64,000 nucleotides of DNA, taken from IMG/VR virus record IMGVR_UViG_3300032251_000002, positions 33,609 to 97,608 of that record; one strand, written 5' to 3'. A program made the position numbers and the translations under genes. The notes below the pieces were generated by a model that saw nothing but the letters and a program-made list of their open reading frames with translations, was not told the origin of the DNA and made no database searches. How positions within the stretch are numbered: the first letter of the stretch is position 1; every line of letters starts with the position of its first letter. Of this stretch, positions 8,276-56,369 are shown piece after piece. The stretch comes from a virus.

Positions 8276-8341
8276 TATATTTTATATAAGAAAACAAATA
8301 ATTATATTTGTATAATTTAATAATAGAAAGGAGTTCTTGAT

Positions 8342-9052
8342 ATGTTATTTAAATCTTTAAGTGAAGCTCAATCTGTTGCAGTTAGCTTAGTTAAAGAAGA
8401 ACTTAATAGGATTCATAAAAGATACAATTTGTATGATAAAGAACACCTTGTAATGTCACTAGAACATTCTACATTTGAAATTATGTTAAGTAATTTTAAA
8501 GAATTACAAGATATTTTTAAACATAATGTACTTGAAATAAATAATGGGTATACTTTTGAACATAGTGTTAAAGTGGCTACTATGGCTGTATTTGTTGCAA
8601 TATTTATGGGATTAACTAAAGATGAAATAGATGGTATATGCAAGGGATGTCTTTTACATGATTATGGTAAAATGTTCTTAGATTATGAAGTAATTCATAA
8701 AAATACAACATTAAATGAAAATGATATATTACATCTTAGGAAACATTGTATGATGGGTTTTAATTATTTTATAAATAATCCAGATATACCAATAGTCAGT
8801 AAGCAAATAATACTTAATCATCATGAAAATCTAGATGGTACAGGGTATCCAAGAGGACTTACAATTAAATCATTAAATTTTTCAACTCAATTATGTTCTT
8901 TATGTGATGTATATGATGCATTGGCATCTGATAGACCCTACAGAAGTGCTGTACCAAGTTCAAGTGCAGTCACTATGATGAAAAAAGAAATAGGTGTTAA
9001 GTTTGATAAGTCAATGTTCTTAATTATAATGAGAATATTATGTTTAGACTAA
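8342..9052 (+). CDS. HD-GYP cyclic dinucleotide phosphodiesterase
   Basis: 236 residues. All hallmark residues of HD-GYP enzymes are visible: His74 (TFEHS), LLHDYGK with HD at 106-107, His135 (LRKHC), HHENLDGTGYP at 160-170, and CDVYDALASDRPYR at 188-201. Family role: hydrolyses cyclic di-GMP to pGpG or GMP (some members act on cGAMP). No membrane segment or receiver domain; the first 70 residues are a helical region of unknown role. A single plus-strand gene with GAAAGGAG and a terminator of its own. With the GGDEF protein at 50058-50726 it gives the phage both arms of cyclic dinucleotide control. Confidence 0.88.
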   Translation: MLFKSLSEAQSVAVSLVKEELNRIHKRYNLYDKEHLVMSLEHSTFEIMLSNFKELQDIFKHNVLEINNGYTFEHSVKVATMAVFVAIFMGLTKDEIDGICKGCLLHDYGKMFLDYEVIHKNTTLNENDILHLRKHCMMGFNYFINNPDIPIVSKQIILNHHENLDGTGYPRGLTIKSLNFSTQLCSLCDVYDALASDRPYRSAVPSSSAVTMMKKEIGVKFDKSMFLIIMRILCLD

Positions 9053-12539: not shown

Positions 12540-13091
12540 TTAGTAATACTCATAATAATCTGGACTCACATAATCTACAAGCCAAACATTGTTAATAGTC
12601 TTATAAAATACTATACCATCATCATGCATTTTTTTAGCATTAATTCTAATTATCTTAGGGTCTCCTCTTCGACTGCCTACAGTTCTAGCAGTTTCTTCAT
12701 CTTTAGATAAATGTACTGCGTGTCTGGTCATTTTTCTAATACCATCATAAGATATAGTTTCCCAAGTTTTTTGAGTAGTTCCATGATATAAATATTTTGG
12801 TGGTATTTCTGGATGCATATTAAATGTAACATCTACTGTAGATATACTATGACCTTGATTAGCTCTAATCATATTACCATCTTTTGAGAATGAATACCTT
12901 GTTTTCTTATCAGTTGCAACTACTTCTTTAAGTTTTTCTAAAGACATTTTATGTTTTGGAGAAAACCTACTTATTCTATCAAGTAATTCTTCAACAAAAC
13001 AATACCCATCCAAGTCTAACTTAAGAGATAGACTTGATGGATTGTGTCTTAGAACATAACTAAGATATCTACTTAGTTTATCATTGTTCAT
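12540..13091 (-). CDS. kptA: RNA 2'-phosphotransferase (Tpt1/KptA family)
   Basis: 183 residues. N-terminal winged-helix part begins LSRYLSYVLRHNP; then TRYSFSKDGNMIRANQGHS, LYHGT, AVHLSKDEETA and NNVWLVDYV, which include the conserved Arg-His-Arg-Arg set of Tpt1 enzymes. Family role: moves a 2'-phosphate from RNA to NAD, giving ADP-ribose 1'',2''-cyclic phosphate; some members ADP-ribosylate nucleic acid ends. The ATG at 13091 was chosen because GAGGGG precedes it and the start overlaps the upstream gene by 11 bases; the longer frame has no similarity. A phage use could be repair of cleaved or 2'-phosphorylated RNA. Confidence 0.88.
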   Translation of the reverse strand: MNNDKLSRYLSYVLRHNPSSLSLKLDLDGYCFVEELLDRISRFSPKHKMSLEKLKEVVATDKKTRYSFSKDGNMIRANQGHSISTVDVTFNMHPEIPPKYLYHGTTQKTWETISYDGIRKMTRHAVHLSKDEETARTVGSRRGDPKIIRINAKKMHDDGIVFYKTINNVWLVDYVSPDYYEYY

Positions 13092-13506
13092 CTCTGTACC
13101 CCTCAAAATTCTTCTTTGCAAATTCTTTGAACTCTTCAAGTGACATGATGTCCATATACTTATGACTAACAACATGACATTTAGCTTTGTAATACTTAAT
13201 GTAATCATTGTTCTCAGTATATCCTTCTCCATCAAATACAAATATATGATGATGATATCCTAAAACACCTCTATCAAACATATGTGCCATTCTTTGAAGT
13301 TCTCTATTTGCTGCATTTTCACCTAACCAACCTATTTCAATAATCATTTGTGGTTTATTAGGGAAAGTTAATCTTAACATTTCATCTCTAGCTTCAGTAA
13401 TACCAAACTGGTCTCTGAACATAGCTTCTGATTCTGGATTCATTTTATAGCTTTTTAAGATTTCAATAACCTTATTTACTGGACTCATTACTGTTTGTTT
13501 ACTCAT
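13081..13506 (-). CDS. Unknown protein upstream of kptA
   Basis: 141 residues, coupled to kptA by overlap. The middle (QMIIEIGWLGENAANREL, then GYHHHIFVFDG) reads like a strand-helix-strand core with acidic and His residues, faintly reminiscent of nuclease folds, but no signature is complete. Position suggests a partner of the 2'-phosphotransferase, as inference. Confidence 0.55.
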   Translation of the reverse strand: MSKQTVMSPVNKVIEILKSYKMNPESEAMFRDQFGITEARDEMLRLTFPNKPQMIIEIGWLGENAANRELQRMAHMFDRGVLGYHHHIFVFDGEGYTENNDYIKYYKAKCHVVSHKYMDIMSLEEFKEFAKKNFEGYRDEQ

Positions 13507-15538: not shown

Positions 15539-15553
15539 CTATAATATATACTT
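15539..15553 (-). promoter_or_regulatory. Recurring AT-rich promoter element
   Basis: Minus strand reads AAGTATATATTATAG, about 22 bases before the start of the gene at 15314-15517 and touching the stop of the gene upstream. The same 15-mer precedes the RNAP beta C-half (21811-21825). Confidence 0.55.
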
Positions 15554-21810: not shown

Positions 21811-21825
21811 CTATAATATATACTT
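21811..21825 (-). promoter_or_regulatory. Recurring AT-rich promoter element
   Basis: Minus strand reads AAGTATATATTATAG, about 40 bases before the RNAP beta C-half start. Confidence 0.55.
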
Positions 21826-29621: not shown

Positions 29622-29828
29622 CTTACTAATCCTAATTATATAATATTCTAAAGTAATGAAAGAAACCACAACCCTTTTGTTATGTTTAGTTAGCATTAGT
29701 AAGATTACCCCTATAGAGGTTTGATATAAAATGAAATGCTATTAAGCCCAGCATTGAAAGTTGTGTCTTACCTTTATTTAGATTTGAAACCATCCTAACC
29801 TTCTCAGTTAGGATGGTTCTTTTTTTTT
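29622..29828 (+). ncRNA. Candidate structured non-coding RNA
   Basis: The 287-base gap 29540-29826 lies between minus-strand genes but has a plus-facing promoter element (29600-29619) and a strong plus-only terminator (29788-29828). Inside, CACAAC (29667-29672) pairs with GTTGTG (29760-29765). AGCATT occurs at 29692-29697 and 29750-29755, and the single AATGCT at 29735-29740 can pair with either but not both, a switch-like arrangement. A small hairpin lies at 29707-29720. A 22-codon frame (29656-29724) has no ribosome site. It does not look like a tRNA or tmRNA. The start is estimated from the promoter. Confidence 0.45.
29788..29818 (+). terminator. Strong plus-strand terminator
   Basis: 12-bp perfect stem AACCATCCTAAC / GTTAGGATGGTT followed by C and ten T on the plus strand; on the minus strand no T-run follows the stem. 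Hence it ends a plus-strand transcript, although both flanking genes are on the minus strand. Confidence 0.85.
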
Positions 29829-30972
29829 AGTAATTACTAAACAACGCTTCTAAGTCAATGTCTTCAGACTTAACTTCAGAATCATCATTACCACCAAAAA
29901 TAGATGGTTTAGTTTTCTTAACTTCTTTACGTTCTTCTTTAAACCAATCAATATTGACATCTTCATCATTAAATAAAGAAATCTTCTCTCTCTTCTTAAA
30001 CTTACCCTTAGCAGACTCAACACTATCCATAACTAATTTAAGTCTATCTTCTGGGAAACTTAAACCTGTAAGAATAGATACAATATAATTCTTATTGTCA
30101 TCTGCAGAATAATATCCTTCAAATGTTTCAATTGGTTGACCAATATTTTTATGGAAAATATCATAATCGATAAACTTAGTTGCTTCTTCTTGAAGTTCGA
30201 AGATATATCCACTTCTTTTAATTACTTTATCATACTGTAAAGAAGCAAATATACTTGAATTCCAAGATGAGTCTAATGCTTCTGCAATAGTTTCTGAATC
30301 ATTAATTTGATTCATAACAGTTACAGTTATTGACATACAGCCTGGAGTAAACATTAATTTAGATAAATCTTTACTATCCATATTACCATACTTACTTGAT
30401 TTTCTCTCTCTGTTATAAACAACATCTAATGATGCAATTACATGACTATTAACACCATTGTATAAATCAGCCTTAGACATTTTTGATTTATGTTCTTTGA
30501 ATTTCTCATTGTCTACAATTAGTGTAGGCACATCAATTGATGATAATTCTTCAAGACATTCATAAGTATTAAATTGAGCTACAGGAGTCTCACTTAATGC
30601 TGGAATTACTGCAATAGCTGCAAACTTCTTGTCTGGAATCATTTTAGTAAGCATGTCAATAATAATTGGAGACATACCTGACCCTGTTCCACCACCTGAA
30701 GAGAATGTAATGTAAATTATATCACAATCGTAAAACTTTGTTTTAACAAACTGAATGATGCTCTTGTAATGTGATTTAACTTCAGACTTACCAATAGCTC
30801 TGTCTTTACCACAACCACCTTGTTCACCTAATAATAACTTATTCTTAACTAAACTAATTGAATCTAAATCTTCTTGACTTGTATTCATTATTGCAGTAGT
30901 GTAACCTTTCTTGTCACCTAACTCAGCAATATTCGAACCACAAGCACCAATACCAAATATACCTACTTTCAT
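29827..30972 (-). CDS. Phage tubulin/FtsZ-like GTPase
   Basis: 381 residues. GIGACGSNIAELG at the start and the tubulin signature GGGTGSG (93-99) are clear; the T7-loop region NSHVIASLDVVYN follows. The acidic C-terminal tail (VKSEDIDLEALFSNY) is like the tails of TubZ/PhuZ-type proteins. Family role: GTP-dependent filaments that position replicating phage DNA or segregate plasmids. No TubR-like partner or clear centromere array was seen nearby; a winged-helix gene lies three genes upstream (31979-32272). ATG behind AAAGGAGG. Confidence 0.88.
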   Translation of the reverse strand: MKVGIFGIGACGSNIAELGDKKGYTTAIMNTSQEDLDSISLVKNKLLLGEQGGCGKDRAIGKSEVKSHYKSIIQFVKTKFYDCDIIYITFSSGGGTGSGMSPIIIDMLTKMIPDKKFAAIAVIPALSETPVAQFNTYECLEELSSIDVPTLIVDNEKFKEHKSKMSKADLYNGVNSHVIASLDVVYNRERKSSKYGNMDSKDLSKLMFTPGCMSITVTVMNQINDSETIAEALDSSWNSSIFASLQYDKVIKRSGYIFELQEEATKFIDYDIFHKNIGQPIETFEGYYSADDNKNYIVSILTGLSFPEDRLKLVMDSVESAKGKFKKREKISLFNDEDVNIDWFKEERKEVKKTKPSIFGGNDDSEVKSEDIDLEALFSNY

Positions 30973-35917: not shown

Positions 35918-37309
35918 TTATCTTCTAGAAGAGTTTTTGAAATTTAATTCTTTAACTTGACCATAAGGTTTTTCTTTAACTGATAAGTCTGATGCTTTAG
36001 TAGTTAATACCCATAATAATTTATATCCTTTTGGAGCTGGGTCAAGTATACGTTCACCACCACCATCTGTAAAGTAAATTGCAATATCAGTTTTAGGAAG
36101 GTTTTCATTGATATATTCAATAGCTGGACTAAATGCAGTACCACCTCTTCCCTTAACATTAAGTTTAATATCTTTCTCACTTTTAGCAGTGTAAACTCTA
36201 ACTACATCCATATCACAGTCAATGATATGTAATTGGAATTTAACATGACGAATAATTCCAAATATTTCACGGAAAATCCATTTTATTTCTTCATCACTAA
36301 CAGAACCAGAGGTATCTATTATAACTGTAATAATTACAGTTCTATCAGAAATACGACCTCTAATATCATATCTATTAGGTTGTCTTCTATCTCTACGTAA
36401 GATAGTTTTTCTATAAGGAATCTTAACACTTCCTAAGTAAAGTTTAAGAACTTTTTGCCAAGAGATTACTGGCTTTTCATTAAGTTTCTTTATAAGTGAT
36501 TCTATATGTCCTGGAACTTTACCACGAGATTTTTCAGCAGCTTCATTAGCGATATCTCTAACCATATCTTTCATGTCATCAATATTACCAACCTTGTCAG
36601 ACTCTCTCCAAACATCATGATTGTTAGTTGGTCCACTACTTAATTCATCACCCATTTCACCACTAGATTGACCATCATCTCCACTATCACTATTACCTTT
36701 AATACTACCTGAATCACTTTTATGATTGTTGTTACCTCTCATTTTGTTCAAGTTATTTTGAGCTTTAGGATTCTTGTGACATGCGTTGTTAATCAAGTCT
36801 ATATAGTACTCAGATTCTCTCTTAGCTTCAACGCTATTTATAAAGAAATCTTTCTCTAATGAATCTAAAGTTATGAATCCACTTCCAGTTTTTCCTAATG
36901 TTGGTAGATATTGATTTATTGACGCATCCATACCTATGTTACATGTAGTTCTATCATACTTAGTTACATACATTTTCTCTCTTAGTAAATGTAAATTAAG
37001 AATATGAAGACATTCATGTCTTAGAATATCTTTACTAATTTGTACTGAATACACTATGAAACGTGGCATGTTTAACCATAAATCAAAGTAAGTTCTATTC
37101 ATAGATACTCCAGCAGGTGCAGGAAATCTTAAATCATATCTTCTATTTAGTAATATTATTACATTTGCATAGAATGGGTCTTCCTTAAGTAAAGAGAATA
37201 TCAATAACTCAATATACTCTTTAAAGTTTTTATGTGCTTTCTTTATTTCACCAGCTTCTATCATTTTAATAATATTTTCTCTCATTTGGTGAATATTATC
37301 TTTAGCCAT
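35918..37309 (-). CDS. VWA-like metallopeptidase-domain protein (DUF2201-type)
   Basis: 463 residues. N-terminal domain with RHECLHILNLH (HECLH at 98-102) and CNIGMDASIN (Asp128), the zinc-peptidase-like pattern of this family. A low-complexity Ser/Gly/Asp/Asn linker follows (residues 190-240), then a von Willebrand A-like domain with the metal site IDTSGSVSDEE (331-341) and GRGGTAFSPAI. Such proteins work with MoxR AAA ATPases, and one is encoded upstream at 39400-40530. Substrate unknown; may remodel or inactivate a host complex. Confidence 0.75.
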   Translation of the reverse strand: MAKDNIHQMRENIIKMIEAGEIKKAHKNFKEYIELLIFSLLKEDPFYANVIILLNRRYDLRFPAPAGVSMNRTYFDLWLNMPRFIVYSVQISKDILRHECLHILNLHLLREKMYVTKYDRTTCNIGMDASINQYLPTLGKTGSGFITLDSLEKDFFINSVEAKRESEYYIDLINNACHKNPKAQNNLNKMRGNNNHKSDSGSIKGNSDSGDDGQSSGEMGDELSSGPTNNHDVWRESDKVGNIDDMKDMVRDIANEAAEKSRGKVPGHIESLIKKLNEKPVISWQKVLKLYLGSVKIPYRKTILRRDRRQPNRYDIRGRISDRTVIITVIIDTSGSVSDEEIKWIFREIFGIIRHVKFQLHIIDCDMDVVRVYTAKSEKDIKLNVKGRGGTAFSPAIEYINENLPKTDIAIYFTDGGGERILDPAPKGYKLLWVLTTKASDLSVKEKPYGQVKELNFKNSSRR

Positions 37310-39399: not shown

Positions 39400-40530
39400 T
39401 TACACACTTCTAAGTCTTTTATTAGTATCATAGAATAAATCTAAGTACTCTGTTACTGCTGATAATTTCTTGTGAAGATTTTTATGGTTATGCATAATAT
39501 TTGCAATTACTGAAACCATTGTATCTTTAGGAATATTATCACAGAAAGTAATAAAGTTCTCAATATCAACTTTGTCATTCTTTTTAGAGCCATCATCAAG
39601 ATAGTTAATTAACTTCTTAACTGTTACTGTAAGTCTAGGAATAGACTCACCTGAGATACGGTGAACCATATTATCACTTAATCTTGAACCACAGAAGATT
39701 TCATCAACTCTAATTAGAGGATTGGTCTTAGTTTCCAAATGTCTCATAAATGCTGTTGCTGGAATACGACCAATATCTGAACGAACAAGTTCACTTAATA
39801 TACCATCATCAAAATTAAATTCTTCAATGAATGTAGTATATTTTTTAGAAACTGATTCCCAAGAACGTGGTGTTGGTTTAATCTTTTCAGTAGATGCTGG
39901 AATATGCAACATATCAATGTTAGATGATATGAACTCAACTATATCATTATGAATACCATTATCCATTGCCCAAGCTAACCAATCTTCTACATCTACAGTT
40001 AAATTATAGAAGGAGAATCTATCTATAAGAGCTGCATTCATAGTATTAACTTGATAGTCATTGTCATCATCAGCTTCTGGATTTCCAGCAGCTATAATAG
40101 AACAATCACCAATAGGTAATTCAGCAGTGTTAATAACTTTATCAAGAATAAGTTGCATTAATTCCTGCTGTACTGCTAACTCTGAACGATTAAGTTCATC
40201 AATGAATAAAATTACATGATAACCTTCTGCTACTAAATCTTGAATCTGCTTAATCTTCCAATACAATGTATATGTATTAATATGGTTTCCTTCATTGTCC
40301 TCTACAGGAATTGGGATACCACCAAGTTCACCTTCTTTAAGAACTGAACCAAATATTGTTACATGTGTAAATTTCATACCATCTTTAGCATATCTTTCAT
40401 TTAACTTTTTACACATCATTTTTGGAAAGTTTGATTTACCAATACCAGCATGTCCTTCAATATAGGCAATCTTTGCTGACTCAGAATTAATGTGTACGTC
40501 TACAACATTTTCTAACATAGTATACTTCAT
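39400..40530 (-). CDS. MoxR-type AAA+ ATPase
   Basis: 376 residues. Walker A GHAGIGKS (26-33), Walker B VILFIDELNR (near 104-113), sensor region IIAAGNPEADDD and arginine-finger region AALIDRFSFYNL follow the order of MoxR ATPases. Family role: an ATP-driven remodelling partner of VWA-domain proteins; here the likely partner is at 35918-37309. It has its own promoter element (40581-40594) and terminator. ATG behind GAGGAGG. Confidence 0.85.
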   Translation of the reverse strand: MKYTMLENVVDVHINSESAKIAYIEGHAGIGKSNFPKMMCKKLNERYAKDGMKFTHVTIFGSVLKEGELGGIPIPVEDNEGNHINTYTLYWKIKQIQDLVAEGYHVILFIDELNRSELAVQQELMQLILDKVINTAELPIGDCSIIAAGNPEADDDNDYQVNTMNAALIDRFSFYNLTVDVEDWLAWAMDNGIHNDIVEFISSNIDMLHIPASTEKIKPTPRSWESVSKKYTTFIEEFNFDDGILSELVRSDIGRIPATAFMRHLETKTNPLIRVDEIFCGSRLSDNMVHRISGESIPRLTVTVKKLINYLDDGSKKNDKVDIENFITFCDNIPKDTMVSVIANIMHNHKNLHKKLSAVTEYLDLFYDTNKRLRSV

Positions 40531-40580: not shown

Positions 40581-40594
40581 TATAATATATATTT
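40581..40594 (-). promoter_or_regulatory. Recurring AT-rich promoter element
   Basis: Minus strand reads AAATATATATTATA, about 50 bases before the MoxR gene start. Confidence 0.5.
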
Positions 40595-41176: not shown

Positions 41177-41614
41177 CTAGTCTGATATAAGTACACCTTT
41201 TAAATGGTCATATTCATGTAAAAATCTTCTTGCATCCATATCTAGTAACTTTGCAATAGTTGGCTTTCCATTCTCATTATAATATCTTACAGATATCTTT
41301 CTAGAACGAGCAACTGGGAACTTTTGGTCTGGGATACTTAGACATCCTTCATTTTTTGTTTCTTTAGTCTTACCTTCTTTAAGGATAATTGGATTGATGA
41401 TAATTTTAGTATTATTCTTACCAAATCTAACTACAAACATAGCCTTTGATAATCCTATTTGTGGTGCAGCAATACCAGCAATTGCAGGATTATCATCTAA
41501 CATTTGTTTCATGTTCATAAAAATTTCTTTATGCATTTCAAAATCTTTAATTTCAACTACATCTTTCCTTAACACATTAGTCTCATCGTTTTCTATAGTT
41601 ATAATTTCGTACAT
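41177..41614 (-). CDS. def: Peptide deformylase
   Basis: 145 residues. All three deformylase motifs are present: GIAAPQIGL, EGCLSIPD and HEYDHLKG (metal-binding Cys and two His). It removes the formyl group from nascent proteins. Phage-encoded deformylases are known and are thought to keep translation products mature during heavy late synthesis. The ATG at 41614 lies 7 bases from AAAGGAG; the longer frame adds twelve unsupported residues. Confidence 0.92.
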   Translation of the reverse strand: MYEIITIENDETNVLRKDVVEIKDFEMHKEIFMNMKQMLDDNPAIAGIAAPQIGLSKAMFVVRFGKNNTKIIINPIILKEGKTKETKNEGCLSIPDQKFPVARSRKISVRYYNENGKPTIAKLLDMDARRFLHEYDHLKGVLISD

Positions 41615-41638
41615 ATTATTTCTCCTTTCAAATAAATA

Positions 41639-41666
41639 ATCCCTATACAAATTAATGTATAGGGAT
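41639..41666 (-). terminator. Intrinsic terminator
   Basis: 11-bp stem ATCCCTATACA / TGTATAGGGAT around AATTAA, after the minus gene 41674-41901. Confidence 0.8.
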
Positions 41667-45648: not shown

Positions 45649-45849
45649 CTATATTCCACGTTTTATTCTAACATCTTGATAGTGTTTATTTATAAATTTA
45701 TAAGCATCATCTGAATCATTACCAGTAAAATCTATACCTAAATAATATTTGATTTGACCTATCAGATACTTTTGTTTATGTGTTGGTGGGTTAACTTCAG
45801 TAATACTTGGTTCTGGGTCTCCAACTAGACCTGTTTTTACATCTAGCAT
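45649..45849 (-). CDS. Unknown small protein
   Basis: 66 residues. The ATG overlaps the stop of the NMN adenylyltransferase (TAATG), so translation is coupled. Short Pro-rich start, then QKYLIGQIKYYLGIDF and a basic end. The phrase KYLIGQIKYYLGI resembles a small helical domain seen in other phage proteins, but no name can be given. Confidence 0.5.
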   Translation of the reverse strand: MLDVKTGLVGDPEPSITEVNPPTHKQKYLIGQIKYYLGIDFTGNDSDDAYKFINKHYQDVRIKRGI

Positions 45850-46436
45850 TACTTACTCCCTTCTGCAAAGAACTTATAATAGTTCACTTGCATTAGTTCT
45901 CCACGTAACTCATCAAAGAATGGATGTAATTCTTTAGGAACTTTTTCACACCACTCATCTCGCTTATCTAATGCCATTAATTCTCTAGTTTCAGTAGCAG
46001 CTACAGGAATTCTTGCTCTTGGTAAAATAATTTCTGAAGTCTCTGGAATATCATTTGTATCAAACCATCTACTTCTAGATTCATCATTACCATATATCAT
46101 TACACAAGGATGTGTCTTTACTACTAGTTTATTTTTACCTAGAACATATCTACCCCATTCAGGTGTAATGTCACCCTCATGTGTCATATCTGGTACATCT
46201 CTTAGGATTATATTACATCCATTATAGTTACTACCATATTTCTCTCTGAACATTCTTGCTCTTGTTTCATAACAGAATGGATTTCTTTCAGTTCCATACT
46301 CTTGAGTTGAACCAATCATAATAACTAAGTTCTTACAAAGCTTAGTAGCTAGTTCAATAAGTGAATGATGTCCTATATGAGGACCAGGTACTTGAAATCT
46401 ACCAAAGATTAAACCATTCATAAATTGCTTTTCCAT
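45849..46436 (-). CDS. Nicotinamide mononucleotide adenylyltransferase (NadM/NadR-like)
   Basis: 195 residues. GLIFGRFQVPGPHIGHHSLIE (residues 8-28) carries the nucleotidyltransferase H-x-G-H motif; IGSTQEYGTERNPFCYETRA and VAATETRELM fit the NMN-binding and ISxTxxR regions. It makes NAD from NMN and ATP. Supplying NAD would support the phage ligase and KptA, and could refill NAD drained by host defences. It lies in an operon downstream of gyrB. No NMN-synthesising partner (Nampt) was found in the window. Confidence 0.85.
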   Translation of the reverse strand: MEKQFMNGLIFGRFQVPGPHIGHHSLIELATKLCKNLVIMIGSTQEYGTERNPFCYETRARMFREKYGSNYNGCNIILRDVPDMTHEGDITPEWGRYVLGKNKLVVKTHPCVMIYGNDESRSRWFDTNDIPETSEIILPRARIPVAATETRELMALDKRDEWCEKVPKELHPFFDELRGELMQVNYYKFFAEGSK

Positions 46437-49474: not shown

Positions 49475-49489
49475 CTATAATATATATTT
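49475..49489 (-). promoter_or_regulatory. Recurring AT-rich promoter element before gyrB
   Basis: Minus strand reads AAATATATATTATAG, about 75 bases before the gyrB start. Confidence 0.5.
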
Positions 49490-49566: not shown

Positions 49567-49596
49567 AAGGGAATTAGCCATTAGACTAATTCCCTT
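49567..49596 (-). terminator. Intrinsic terminator after the DUF1653/GGDEF pair
   Basis: 11-bp stem AAGGGAATTAG / CTAATTCCCTT with an 8-base loop, ten bases past the stop of the minus gene 49607-50053. Confidence 0.8.
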
Positions 49597-49606
49597 GTTA
49601 ATATTA

Positions 49607-50053
49607 CTAAGTGTTTTCTAAATCTTCTCTTCTTTGGAATCTATCTCTTCTAAGAGTTCCAAATTCTAATATTTCGTTAAACATAAATATTGGTCTTGAA
49701 TAAGTGTTACTGGCATTAGGTGTATCTCCATAAGGAACATATGAAACTATCATCTTACCACTTTCAGTATATAATGATATACCTACTATTGTATAAATAT
49801 TTCCTTTAAAATGTTCATATATTTGACCTACATGTAAATTTCTATTAAGAGTACCTACAACTTTATAAGTTTGCTTTAAAAATGACTCTCTAACATATTC
49901 ACGAACATACAGTAATAATGTAATAATAATTACTGTAAGTAGTGTAGATATTAAGTCAATATCAGTTAACCCACAAATCATTAACATTATTTTCACTATA
50001 GCATATATAACTAATGCATATATGACATCATGTTTACTACTAGCTTTCTTCAT
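49607..50053 (-). CDS. Membrane-anchored DUF1653-like protein
   Basis: 148 residues. Two membrane helices near the start (about residues 9-27 and 33-50), then a soluble domain: VGQIYEHFKGNIYTIVGISL, MIVSYVPYGD, SRPIFMFNEIL and RDRFQRR, which follow the DUF1653 pattern (G-x-Y-x-H-F/Y-K-G-N ... RP ... MF ... RF). The gene starts four bases after the GGDEF gene, so both are made together. The DUF1653 domain may be the reader or regulator of the cyclase; this is inference. Confidence 0.65.
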   Translation of the reverse strand: MKKASSKHDVIYALVIYAIVKIMLMICGLTDIDLISTLLTVIIITLLLYVREYVRESFLKQTYKVVGTLNRNLHVGQIYEHFKGNIYTIVGISLYTESGKMIVSYVPYGDTPNASNTYSRPIFMFNEILEFGTLRRDRFQRREDLENT

Positions 50054-50057
50054 CTTT

Positions 50058-50726
50058 TTATTTCAGTCCTTTCTTCACCTTTTCTTTTTTAATGTGGTAC
50101 ATTCTTTTGTCTGCCACACTAATTAAGTCATCTAAATTATCACCATCTACTGAAAATACACTTCTACCTAGTGAGAAGCTTATATCAAATTCAGTACTAT
50201 CAGACAACATATTTAAATTATTAATGAGTCTATTTTGCATAGGACAAACTTCTGCTGTTTCTTCAACATCATATATAAACAGTACAAATTCATCCCCACC
50301 CCATCTTATAACACTATCAGTTTCTCTAACAGACATCTTAATAGTATTTGCTAAGAATTTTAAAATTTCATCACCTTTTAAATGTCCATATGTATCATTG
50401 ACTTTTTTAAAGTTATCTATATCAATTAACATTATACATATATGTTCATTCTTATGTTTTGCTCTTTTAAAAATTTTACTTGAGTACTTTGTTATATAAT
50501 TTCTATTATATACTTGAGTTAGTGAATCAATCAAATGATTTCTAACTGCTTTATCATAACGTTTACCTAGCAACCAAAATACAAGTGTTATGAAACTAAT
50601 AACTGCAACCTGAATTAACGTTGTATCCATTACCCCAATATCTCTCACATATTCAAGCATTTTTATAAATAATATACTTACTATAAAAAAACTGAGACCA
50701 ACTATTCTTCCTTTGTATTGCGACAT
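50058..50726 (-). CDS. Membrane-bound GGDEF diguanylate cyclase
   Basis: 222 residues. Two membrane helices (about residues 9-23 and 36-54), short basic linker, then a GGDEF domain: DSLTQVYNRN, the metal-binding MLIDIDNFKKVNDTYGH, RETD (134-137) and RWGGDEF (141-147). The active-site GGDEF is intact, and RETD sits five residues before it, the position of the product-inhibition I-site in PleD. So it should make cyclic di-GMP from two GTP and sense its product. No periplasmic sensor domain. It may also be a close relative that makes cGAMP. ATG behind GGGAGG. Confidence 0.88.
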   Translation of the reverse strand: MSQYKGRIVGLSFFIVSILFIKMLEYVRDIGVMDTTLIQVAVISFITLVFWLLGKRYDKAVRNHLIDSLTQVYNRNYITKYSSKIFKRAKHKNEHICIMLIDIDNFKKVNDTYGHLKGDEILKFLANTIKMSVRETDSVIRWGGDEFVLFIYDVEETAEVCPMQNRLINNLNMLSDSTEFDISFSLGRSVFSVDGDNLDDLISVADKRMYHIKKEKVKKGLK

Positions 50727-50765: not shown

Positions 50766-50798
50766 ATTCCCATGTCCTTTATAAAGAACATGGGAATA
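50766..50798 (-). terminator. Intrinsic terminator after the redoxin gene
   Basis: ATTCCCATGT (50766-50775) pairs with ACATGGGAAT (50789-50798), with a further self-complementary core CTTTATAAAG; T-rich DNA follows on the minus strand. It separates the reductase cluster from the GGDEF gene. Confidence 0.8.
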
Positions 50799-53739: not shown

Positions 53740-53889
53740 ATTATGTTTACACTCCTTTTTAATATAATATTATAATCCCTAAAATGATAAGGATGATTAT
53801 AACTTTTTCACATTCGATAATTATTTGTTGCATAAACTTTCTTTTATTTTTGAAAGGACAATAAAAAATAAAGTTTCTAATAAAGAAAA

Positions 53890-56354: not shown

Positions 56355-56369
56355 TTATAATATATACTT
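56355..56369 (-). promoter_or_regulatory. Recurring AT-rich promoter element
   Basis: Minus strand reads AAGTATATATTATAA, about 28 bases before the start at 56327. Confidence 0.5.

What the first reader, a model, noticed from the sequence alone, without database searches (positions are those of the whole stretch)
50058..50726. Phage-encoded membrane diguanylate cyclase with intact active site and I-site
The protein has GGDEF, the metal-binding IDIDNFKKVND block and RETD exactly five residues before GGDEF, the product-inhibition site of PleD-type enzymes. Two membrane helices anchor it without an outer sensor domain. Complete diguanylate cyclases are uncommon in phages; with the HD-GYP enzyme the phage could set cyclic di-GMP levels during infection.
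Basis: partly seen in the sequence, partly recalled or inferred. Interest (0 to 1): 0.7.

Follow-up and report, generated by a model that had tools for sequence, protein, structure and literature searches.

The report
Membrane diguanylate cyclase of jumbo phage
A large bacterial virus related to the Bacillus phages AR9 and PBS1 carries an intact-looking gene for a small membrane enzyme that should make the bacterial signal cyclic di-GMP; this is a real and uncommon gene, but the same kind of enzyme is already known from several other phages.

Summary
The ORF at 50058-50726 (minus strand, 222 aa) is a full GGDEF domain (PF00990, 142 bits) behind two N-terminal membrane helices. All tested GTP/metal residues but one and the I-site (R134, D137, probably R166) are present. 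The AlphaFold2 model (pLDDT 92.7) matches the Thermotoga diguanylate cyclase (TM 0.86-0.89). The window is part of a 97.6-kb fragment of an AR9/PBS1-like jumbo phage, judged by terminase, RNA polymerase ORFs, sheath, capsid and AR9-type promoters. The HD-GYP partner at 8342-9052 also looks intact.

The novelty is smaller than claimed. Phage diguanylate cyclases are already annotated in Bacillus phages SP-15 and G, Bordetella phage LK3, Yuavirus and Mu-like viruses. HD-GYP enzymes in jumbo phages are described too. RxxD sits at the I-site position in 66 of 80 ORFs from my scan, so it is ordinary. Another viral record (G043) also carries both domains.

Somewhat new: of 39 terminase relatives, none has HD-GYP and only one has even a partial GGDEF match. 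The cyclase sits with a small membrane DUF1653 protein between two terminators. Promoter motifs suggest late expression. Best reading: an active c-di-GMP synthase acting late in infection; its purpose is unproven.

The parts
50058..50726 (-). Membrane diguanylate cyclase gene (222 aa)
   Evidence: PF00990 142 bits; AF2 pLDDT 92.7; Foldseek to 4urs/4urg TMt 0.86-0.89
50649..50705 (-). First membrane helix, residues 8-26
   Evidence: Kyte-Doolittle window; helix 2-29 in the model
50565..50621 (-). Second membrane helix, residues 36-54, running on into the helix that enters the GGDEF domain
   Evidence: helix 35-65 in the model
50079..50531 (-). GGDEF catalytic domain, residues 66-216
   Evidence: Pfam match
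50316..50327 (-). Primary I-site motif RETD, residues 134-137 (PleD R359-D362)
   Evidence: Alignment with PleD and T. maritima DGC
50286..50300 (-). A-site GGDEF, residues 143-147
   Evidence: Sequence; alignment with PleD 368-372
49607..50053 (-). 148-aa protein with an N-terminal membrane segment and a DUF1653 domain, four bases downstream of the cyclase: probable co-transcribed partner of unknown role
   Evidence: PF07866 40 bits; no relative in the phage collection or in the peptide-pattern scan of viral contigs
50766..50797 (-). Terminator-like hairpin (14 pairs, then T-run) upstream of the cyclase
49567..49596 (-). Terminator-like hairpin (13 pairs) downstream of the DUF1653 gene
53818..53829 (-). 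AR9-type late promoter-like AACAAATAATTA ahead of the unit nrdD, radical-SAM activase-like ORF, glutaredoxin, (terminator), cyclase, DUF1653
   Evidence: AR9 late consensus AACA-6N-TA/G from PMC5312081
8342..9052 (+). HD-GYP phosphodiesterase-like gene (236 aa)
   Evidence: PF13487 63 bits; HDYGK, HHENLDGTGYP, DVYDAL-SDRPY; aligned with 5z7c and 4mcw
8293..8304 (+). AR9-type late promoter-like AACAAATAATTA about 37 nt before the HD-GYP start codon

Best explanation
The gene encodes a small inner-membrane diguanylate cyclase. Two helices form a hairpin with both ends in the cytoplasm (inferred from the positive residues at both inner ends). The helix leaving the membrane enters the GGDEF domain, and two such chains pair to condense two GTP into c-di-GMP. 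The RxxD I-site would let the product inhibit the enzyme and cap the level (inferred from homology). Having no sensor, it would be constitutively active once made, controlled by expression and by product inhibition. In an AR9/PBS1-like phage it would be made during the phage's own transcription programme, probably late, and raise c-di-GMP in the infected cell. The most likely benefit is a change of the infected cell's surface state: less flagellar motility and more adhesion. Because PBS1 and AR9 enter through flagella, this could also limit re-adsorption to cells already infected. That last step is hypothesis only. The stated confidence refers to the enzyme being an active c-di-GMP synthase; I would give the motility/surface role about 0.3.
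For: Full-length PF00990 match. Relative to PleD: D102=D327, F106=F331, K107=K332, N110=N335, D111=D336, H115=H340, D119=D344, R134/D137=R359/D362, GGDEF=368-372, K213=K442. R166 aligns with the Arg of 'ER' in the T. maritima enzyme. AF2 pLDDT 92.7, and fold matches to DGCs solved with c-di-GMP or GTP. Jumbo-phage context: TerL 44% identical to Goe21, a PBS1/AR9 relative, a beta-type and an Rpb2-type RNA polymerase ORF, sheath and capsid, AR9-type promoters. Flagellotropism of PBS1/AR9: PMC9266447. Lysogens of Bordetella phage LK3, which carries a DGC, overproduced biofilm (PMC8471281).
Against: No activity data. PleD R446 aligns with V217, so the C-terminal GRN motif is missing; the T. maritima enzyme has a similar ending. 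No c-di-GMP riboswitch, PilZ or EAL in the record, though the record is a fragment. The host is unknown. No recognisable phage promoter lies directly ahead of the gene after the terminator, so expression may be low. The relatives Goe21, BpSp and S6 lack it, so it is not needed by this phage type.
Confidence: 0.72

Rival explanations
1. The GGDEF domain is catalytically weak or silent and serves as a c-di-GMP or GTP sensor (I-site receptor) or as a membrane scaffold, for example for the DUF1653 neighbour.
For: Some GGDEF proteins act as receptors (established knowledge); R446 of PleD is not conserved here; the gene pairs with a membrane DUF1653 protein.
Against: Receptor-type domains usually have a decayed A-site, whereas here the A-site residues are kept; the T. 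maritima diguanylate cyclase also lacks the GRN ending.
Confidence: 0.12
2. Signal interference: the cyclase and the HD-GYP enzyme are both counter-defence factors. The HD-GYP destroys host defence cyclic nucleotides (CBASS or type III CRISPR signals), and the cyclase floods or competes with them.
For: Jumbo-phage HD-GYPs are proposed as counter-CBASS/CRISPR enzymes (PMC7824862); the HD-GYP here is closest to V-cGAP3 and PmGH; the phage also carries NAD/RNA-related genes (KptA; an NMN adenylyltransferase-like ORF).
Against: Neither gene has an AR9-type early promoter directly ahead and the HD-GYP has late-type sites, late for counter-defence; the cyclase carries Asp at the position that sets c-di-GMP specificity.
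Confidence: 0.12
3. A neutral passenger gene recently picked up from a bacterium, with no lasting role for the phage.
For: Patchy distribution: only one partial GGDEF match among 39 terminase relatives.
Against: Reading frame and active site are intact, identity to listed phage homologues is about 36% at most, and it is compactly placed with a ribosome-binding site and flanking terminators, which argues for retention.
Confidence: 0.15

Closest known systems
Bacillus phage SP-15 gp150 (SP15_150, AMM44948.1) diguanylate cyclase
   Same: Phage-encoded small GGDEF protein with an N-terminal membrane segment, GGEEF, I-site REED; 36% identical; second-best viral fold match; noted in PMC5977210
   Different: One membrane helix instead of two; lies in a carbohydrate/teichoic-acid gene cluster; different phage genus (Thornevirus)
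Bacillus phage G gp350 (GGDEF motif diguanylate cyclase)
   Same: Jumbo phage of Bacillus, 254 aa, two predicted helices before GGDEF, I-site REED; best viral fold match
   Different: 30% identical, unrelated genome; no HD_5 match in phage G
Thermotoga maritima DGC GGDEF domain (4urs, 4urg)
   Same: Closest solved structure by sequence and by fold; same GGDEF box, RxxD I-site and a C-terminus without GRN
   Different: Bacterial enzyme, solved as the isolated domain
PleD (Caulobacter), the reference for the I-site
   Same: A-site and RxxD positions conserved
   Different: No receiver domains here; membrane anchored; R446 not conserved
Bordetella phage LK3 / Vojvodinavirus and Pseudomonas Yuavirus GGDEF proteins; Mu-like DGC viruses
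   Same: Phage-borne diguanylate cyclases with a proposed biofilm role (PMC8471281; PMC7785012)
   Different: LK3 is a temperate siphovirus and the Cariaco viruses are Mu-like; none is an AR9-type jumbo phage

Membership tests
GGDEF diguanylate cyclase (PF00990) | Full-length domain above the curated cut-off | tested here: met
   141.9 bits against 23.8; profile 3-158 of 161
GGDEF diguanylate cyclase (PF00990) | A-site GG[DE]EF plus metal and base-contact residues (PleD D327, N335, D344, K442) | tested here: met
   D102, N110, D119, GGDEF 143-147, K213; R446 is replaced (V217)
GGDEF diguanylate cyclase (PF00990) | GGDEF fold | tested here: met
   AF2 pLDDT 92.7; Foldseek top 4urs E 2.3e-16
GGDEF diguanylate cyclase (PF00990) | Makes c-di-GMP as a dimer | not testable with these tools
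   Needs an enzyme assay
I-site (product-inhibited) DGC | RxxD five residues before GGDEF, plus the Arg equivalent to PleD R390 | tested here: met
   R134/D137 certain; R166 by alignment with 4urs, with a nearby gap against PleD
Hypr (cGAMP-making) GGDEF | Ser in place of Asp at GacA position 347 (PleD D344) | tested here: not met
   D119 present; that GacA 347 sets selectivity is from PMC6456294, and its equivalence with PleD 344 is established knowledge
HD-GYP phosphodiesterase (8342-9052) | HDxGK, HHExxDGxGYP and the metal-binding H/D residues | tested here: met
   All but the third-metal Glu (PmGH E185, Tyr here, as in V-cGAP3); substrate not testable
AR9/PBS1-like jumbo phage | Related terminase, phage multisubunit RNA polymerase, AR9-type early and late promoter motifs | tested here: met
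   TerL 44%; RNAP ORFs; early motif 10 against 2.8 expected; late motif 35 sense against 16 antisense in intergenic leaders
AR9/PBS1-like jumbo phage | Complete genome over 200 kb | not testable with these tools
   The record is a 97.6-kb linear fragment

The most novel reading that the evidence does not exclude
A flagellum-dependent jumbo phage carries its own c-di-GMP synthase and a phosphodiesterase to set the signal late in infection, shutting down motility and flagellar display so that infected cells stop capturing progeny or competing phages: superinfection exclusion through a second messenger.
Probability: 0.08. Interest if true: 0.75.

Novelty: new member of a known kind. Interest (0 to 1): 0.3.

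Why it matters
Phages that make c-di-GMP could reprogramme motility, adhesion or defence signalling of infected cells. Several such genes are annotated, but in the papers read here only correlative lysogen data (LK3) were found. A sensorless, two-helix enzyme of this size is a convenient test case, and the presence of an HD-GYP in the same genome makes the question of whether phages tune the signal both ways testable.

Tried and rejected
Bacterial genomes gave only distant GGDEF relatives (34% or less over the full domain), so no donor or host could be named. Searches for c-di-GMP riboswitches, PilZ, EAL and tRNA were negative. cGAMP synthesis was rejected from D119. I dropped the count of Asp at position 344 among viral homologues, because the scan pattern itself selects for it. 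The Microcystis phage MaAM05 record, which has both domains, was not leaned on: it carries cyanobacterial-type housekeeping genes and has no terminase match, though that test also missed SP-15.

Full report
Observation. The ORF at 50058-50726 on the minus strand encodes 222 aa with ATG start and a GGGAGG ribosome-binding site nine bases upstream. Pfam finds only GGDEF, PF00990, residues 66-216, E 2e-41. Two membrane segments, residues 8-26 and 36-54, precede it.

Active site. I aligned the protein with PleD (a typed fragment whose identity with the PDB PleD chains, one residue aside, was checked) and with the solved T. maritima domain. D102, F106, K107, N110, D111, H115, D119, the GGDEF box and K213 match the PleD metal, phosphate and guanine residues. 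The I-site pair R134/D137 is present, and R166 most likely stands for R390. PleD R446 is not kept (V217), but the T. maritima enzyme has a similar ending, so I do not count this as damage. Asp at 119 speaks for GTP and against the Ser-type cGAMP-making (Hypr) enzymes; position 347 of GacA as a selectivity position is from PMC6456294. AlphaFold2 gave pLDDT 92.7 and pTM 0.80. The best PDB fold matches are 4urs/4urg, TM-score by target 0.86-0.89, with PleD-c-di-GMP among the matches.

How unusual is it? RxxD at the I-site position occurs in 66 of 80 GGDEF ORFs from the scan, almost all from IMG/VR contigs and two from bacterial genomes (some rows are near-duplicates), so the I-site is the usual state. 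In INPHARED 130 of 50,697 records match the protein at E 1e-5, none above 60% identity; 72 of them are named only 'Bacteriophage sp.'. So complete diguanylate cyclases are uncommon in phages, but they are known: SP-15 gp150, phage G gp350, Bordetella phages LK3 and CN1 and Pseudomonas Yuavirus, Mu-like viruses of the Cariaco Basin and sargassum-associated viruses.

The genome. The window is 33609-97608 of a 97.6-kb linear virus record. Its terminase is 44% identical to that of Bacillus phage Goe21 (Takahashivirus; BpSp, PBS1 and AR9 are the next hits). It has a phage RNA polymerase beta-type ORF and an Rpb2-domain ORF, sheath and major head protein, a gyrase subunit B-like gene, NrdD and a Dda-like helicase and a tubulin-like protein. 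A motif found ahead of gyrB, the RNA polymerase gene and others, ATATATTATA, is the AR9 early consensus AAATATATATTAT-6N-G (PMC5312081): 10 hits at one mismatch or less against 2.8 expected. The AR9 late consensus AACA-6N-TA/G is enriched in intergenic leaders in the sense direction, 35 against 16 antisense, including ahead of terminase, sheath and capsid genes.

Local anatomy. The cyclase lies between two terminator-like hairpins, 50766-50797 and 49567-49596, together with a 148-aa membrane protein with a DUF1653 domain that starts four bases after it. No AR9-type early promoter lies directly upstream. The nearest clear upstream site on its strand is a late-type AACAAATAATTA at 53818-53829 ahead of nrdD, after another hairpin; another late-like AACACACACATA precedes the glutaredoxin gene. 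The HD-GYP gene has the same AACAAATAATTA about 37 bases before its start codon. Both genes are therefore predicted, by motif only, to be late, and the cyclase would need read-through of a hairpin or a promoter I did not recognise.

HD-GYP partner. The protein at 8342-9052 (+) has HDYGK, HHENLDGTGYP and DVYDALASDRPY and aligns with V-cGAP3 (5z7c) and PmGH (4mcw); the third-metal Glu is absent, as in V-cGAP3. Sequence does not settle its substrate. HD-GYP enzymes in jumbo phages were already described and read as counter-defence (PMC7824862). The two genes are about 41 kb apart on opposite strands, so a joint module is not shown.

Distribution. Of 39 terminase relatives (36 IMG/VR records plus Goe21, BpSp and S6), one (G016) has a partial GGDEF match and none has HD_5; many are fragments. 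Among 13 other records fetched as possible or known carriers of a phage cyclase, G043 and the doubtful MaAM05 record also have HD_5; G043 has a terminase. The cyclase is therefore a sporadic acquisition in this phage group, and the pairing is rare but not unique.

Function. I think the enzyme makes c-di-GMP at the membrane of infected cells, with product inhibition as the brake (enzyme: sequence and predicted fold; activity: inferred). For the benefit to the phage, the best idea is a change of surface behaviour. PBS1 and AR9 infect through flagella (PMC9266447), so lowering motility could reduce re-adsorption to infected cells. This is untested, and the host of this phage is unknown.

Verdict. 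Real, correctly read at the sequence level, ordinary in its details, and a new member of a known kind. Interest 0.3.

Noticed in passing
window 49477-49489, 40582-40594, 21813-21825, 15541-15553, 56357-56369 and others: AR9-type early (virion RNA polymerase) promoter motif AAATATATATTAT ahead of gyrB, a RNA polymerase subunit gene and others; 10 hits at one mismatch or less against 2.8 expected.
   Followed up: partly
L003 (terminase, sheath, capsid leaders) and window intergenic leaders: AR9-type late promoter consensus AACA-6N-TA/G enriched in the sense direction ahead of structural genes, so the AR9 promoter grammar seems conserved in this distant relative.
   Followed up: partly
window 29827-30972 (-): Tubulin/FtsZ-like GTPase (PF00091, TubZ C-terminal domain), possibly a PhuZ-type spindle protein.
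   Followed up: no
window 12540-13241 (-) and 45849-46436 (-): RNA 2'-phosphotransferase KptA (165 bits) and an NMN adenylyltransferase-like cytidylyltransferase: NAD/RNA-related genes of the kind discussed as jumbo-phage counter-defence.
   Followed up: no
window 35918-37309 (-) and 39400-40530 (-): A VWA/metallopeptidase-like protein (DUF2201) near an AAA ATPase, resembling a MoxR-VWA pair.
   Followed up: no
window 41177-41650 (-): Phage-encoded peptide deformylase (127 bits).
   Followed up: no
L006 (MW495066.1, Microcystis phage MaAM05): Record labelled phage but with pgi, hemW, cysteine desulfurase and ferredoxin genes and no match to the terminase family; it may be a cyanobacterial contig.
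   Followed up: partly
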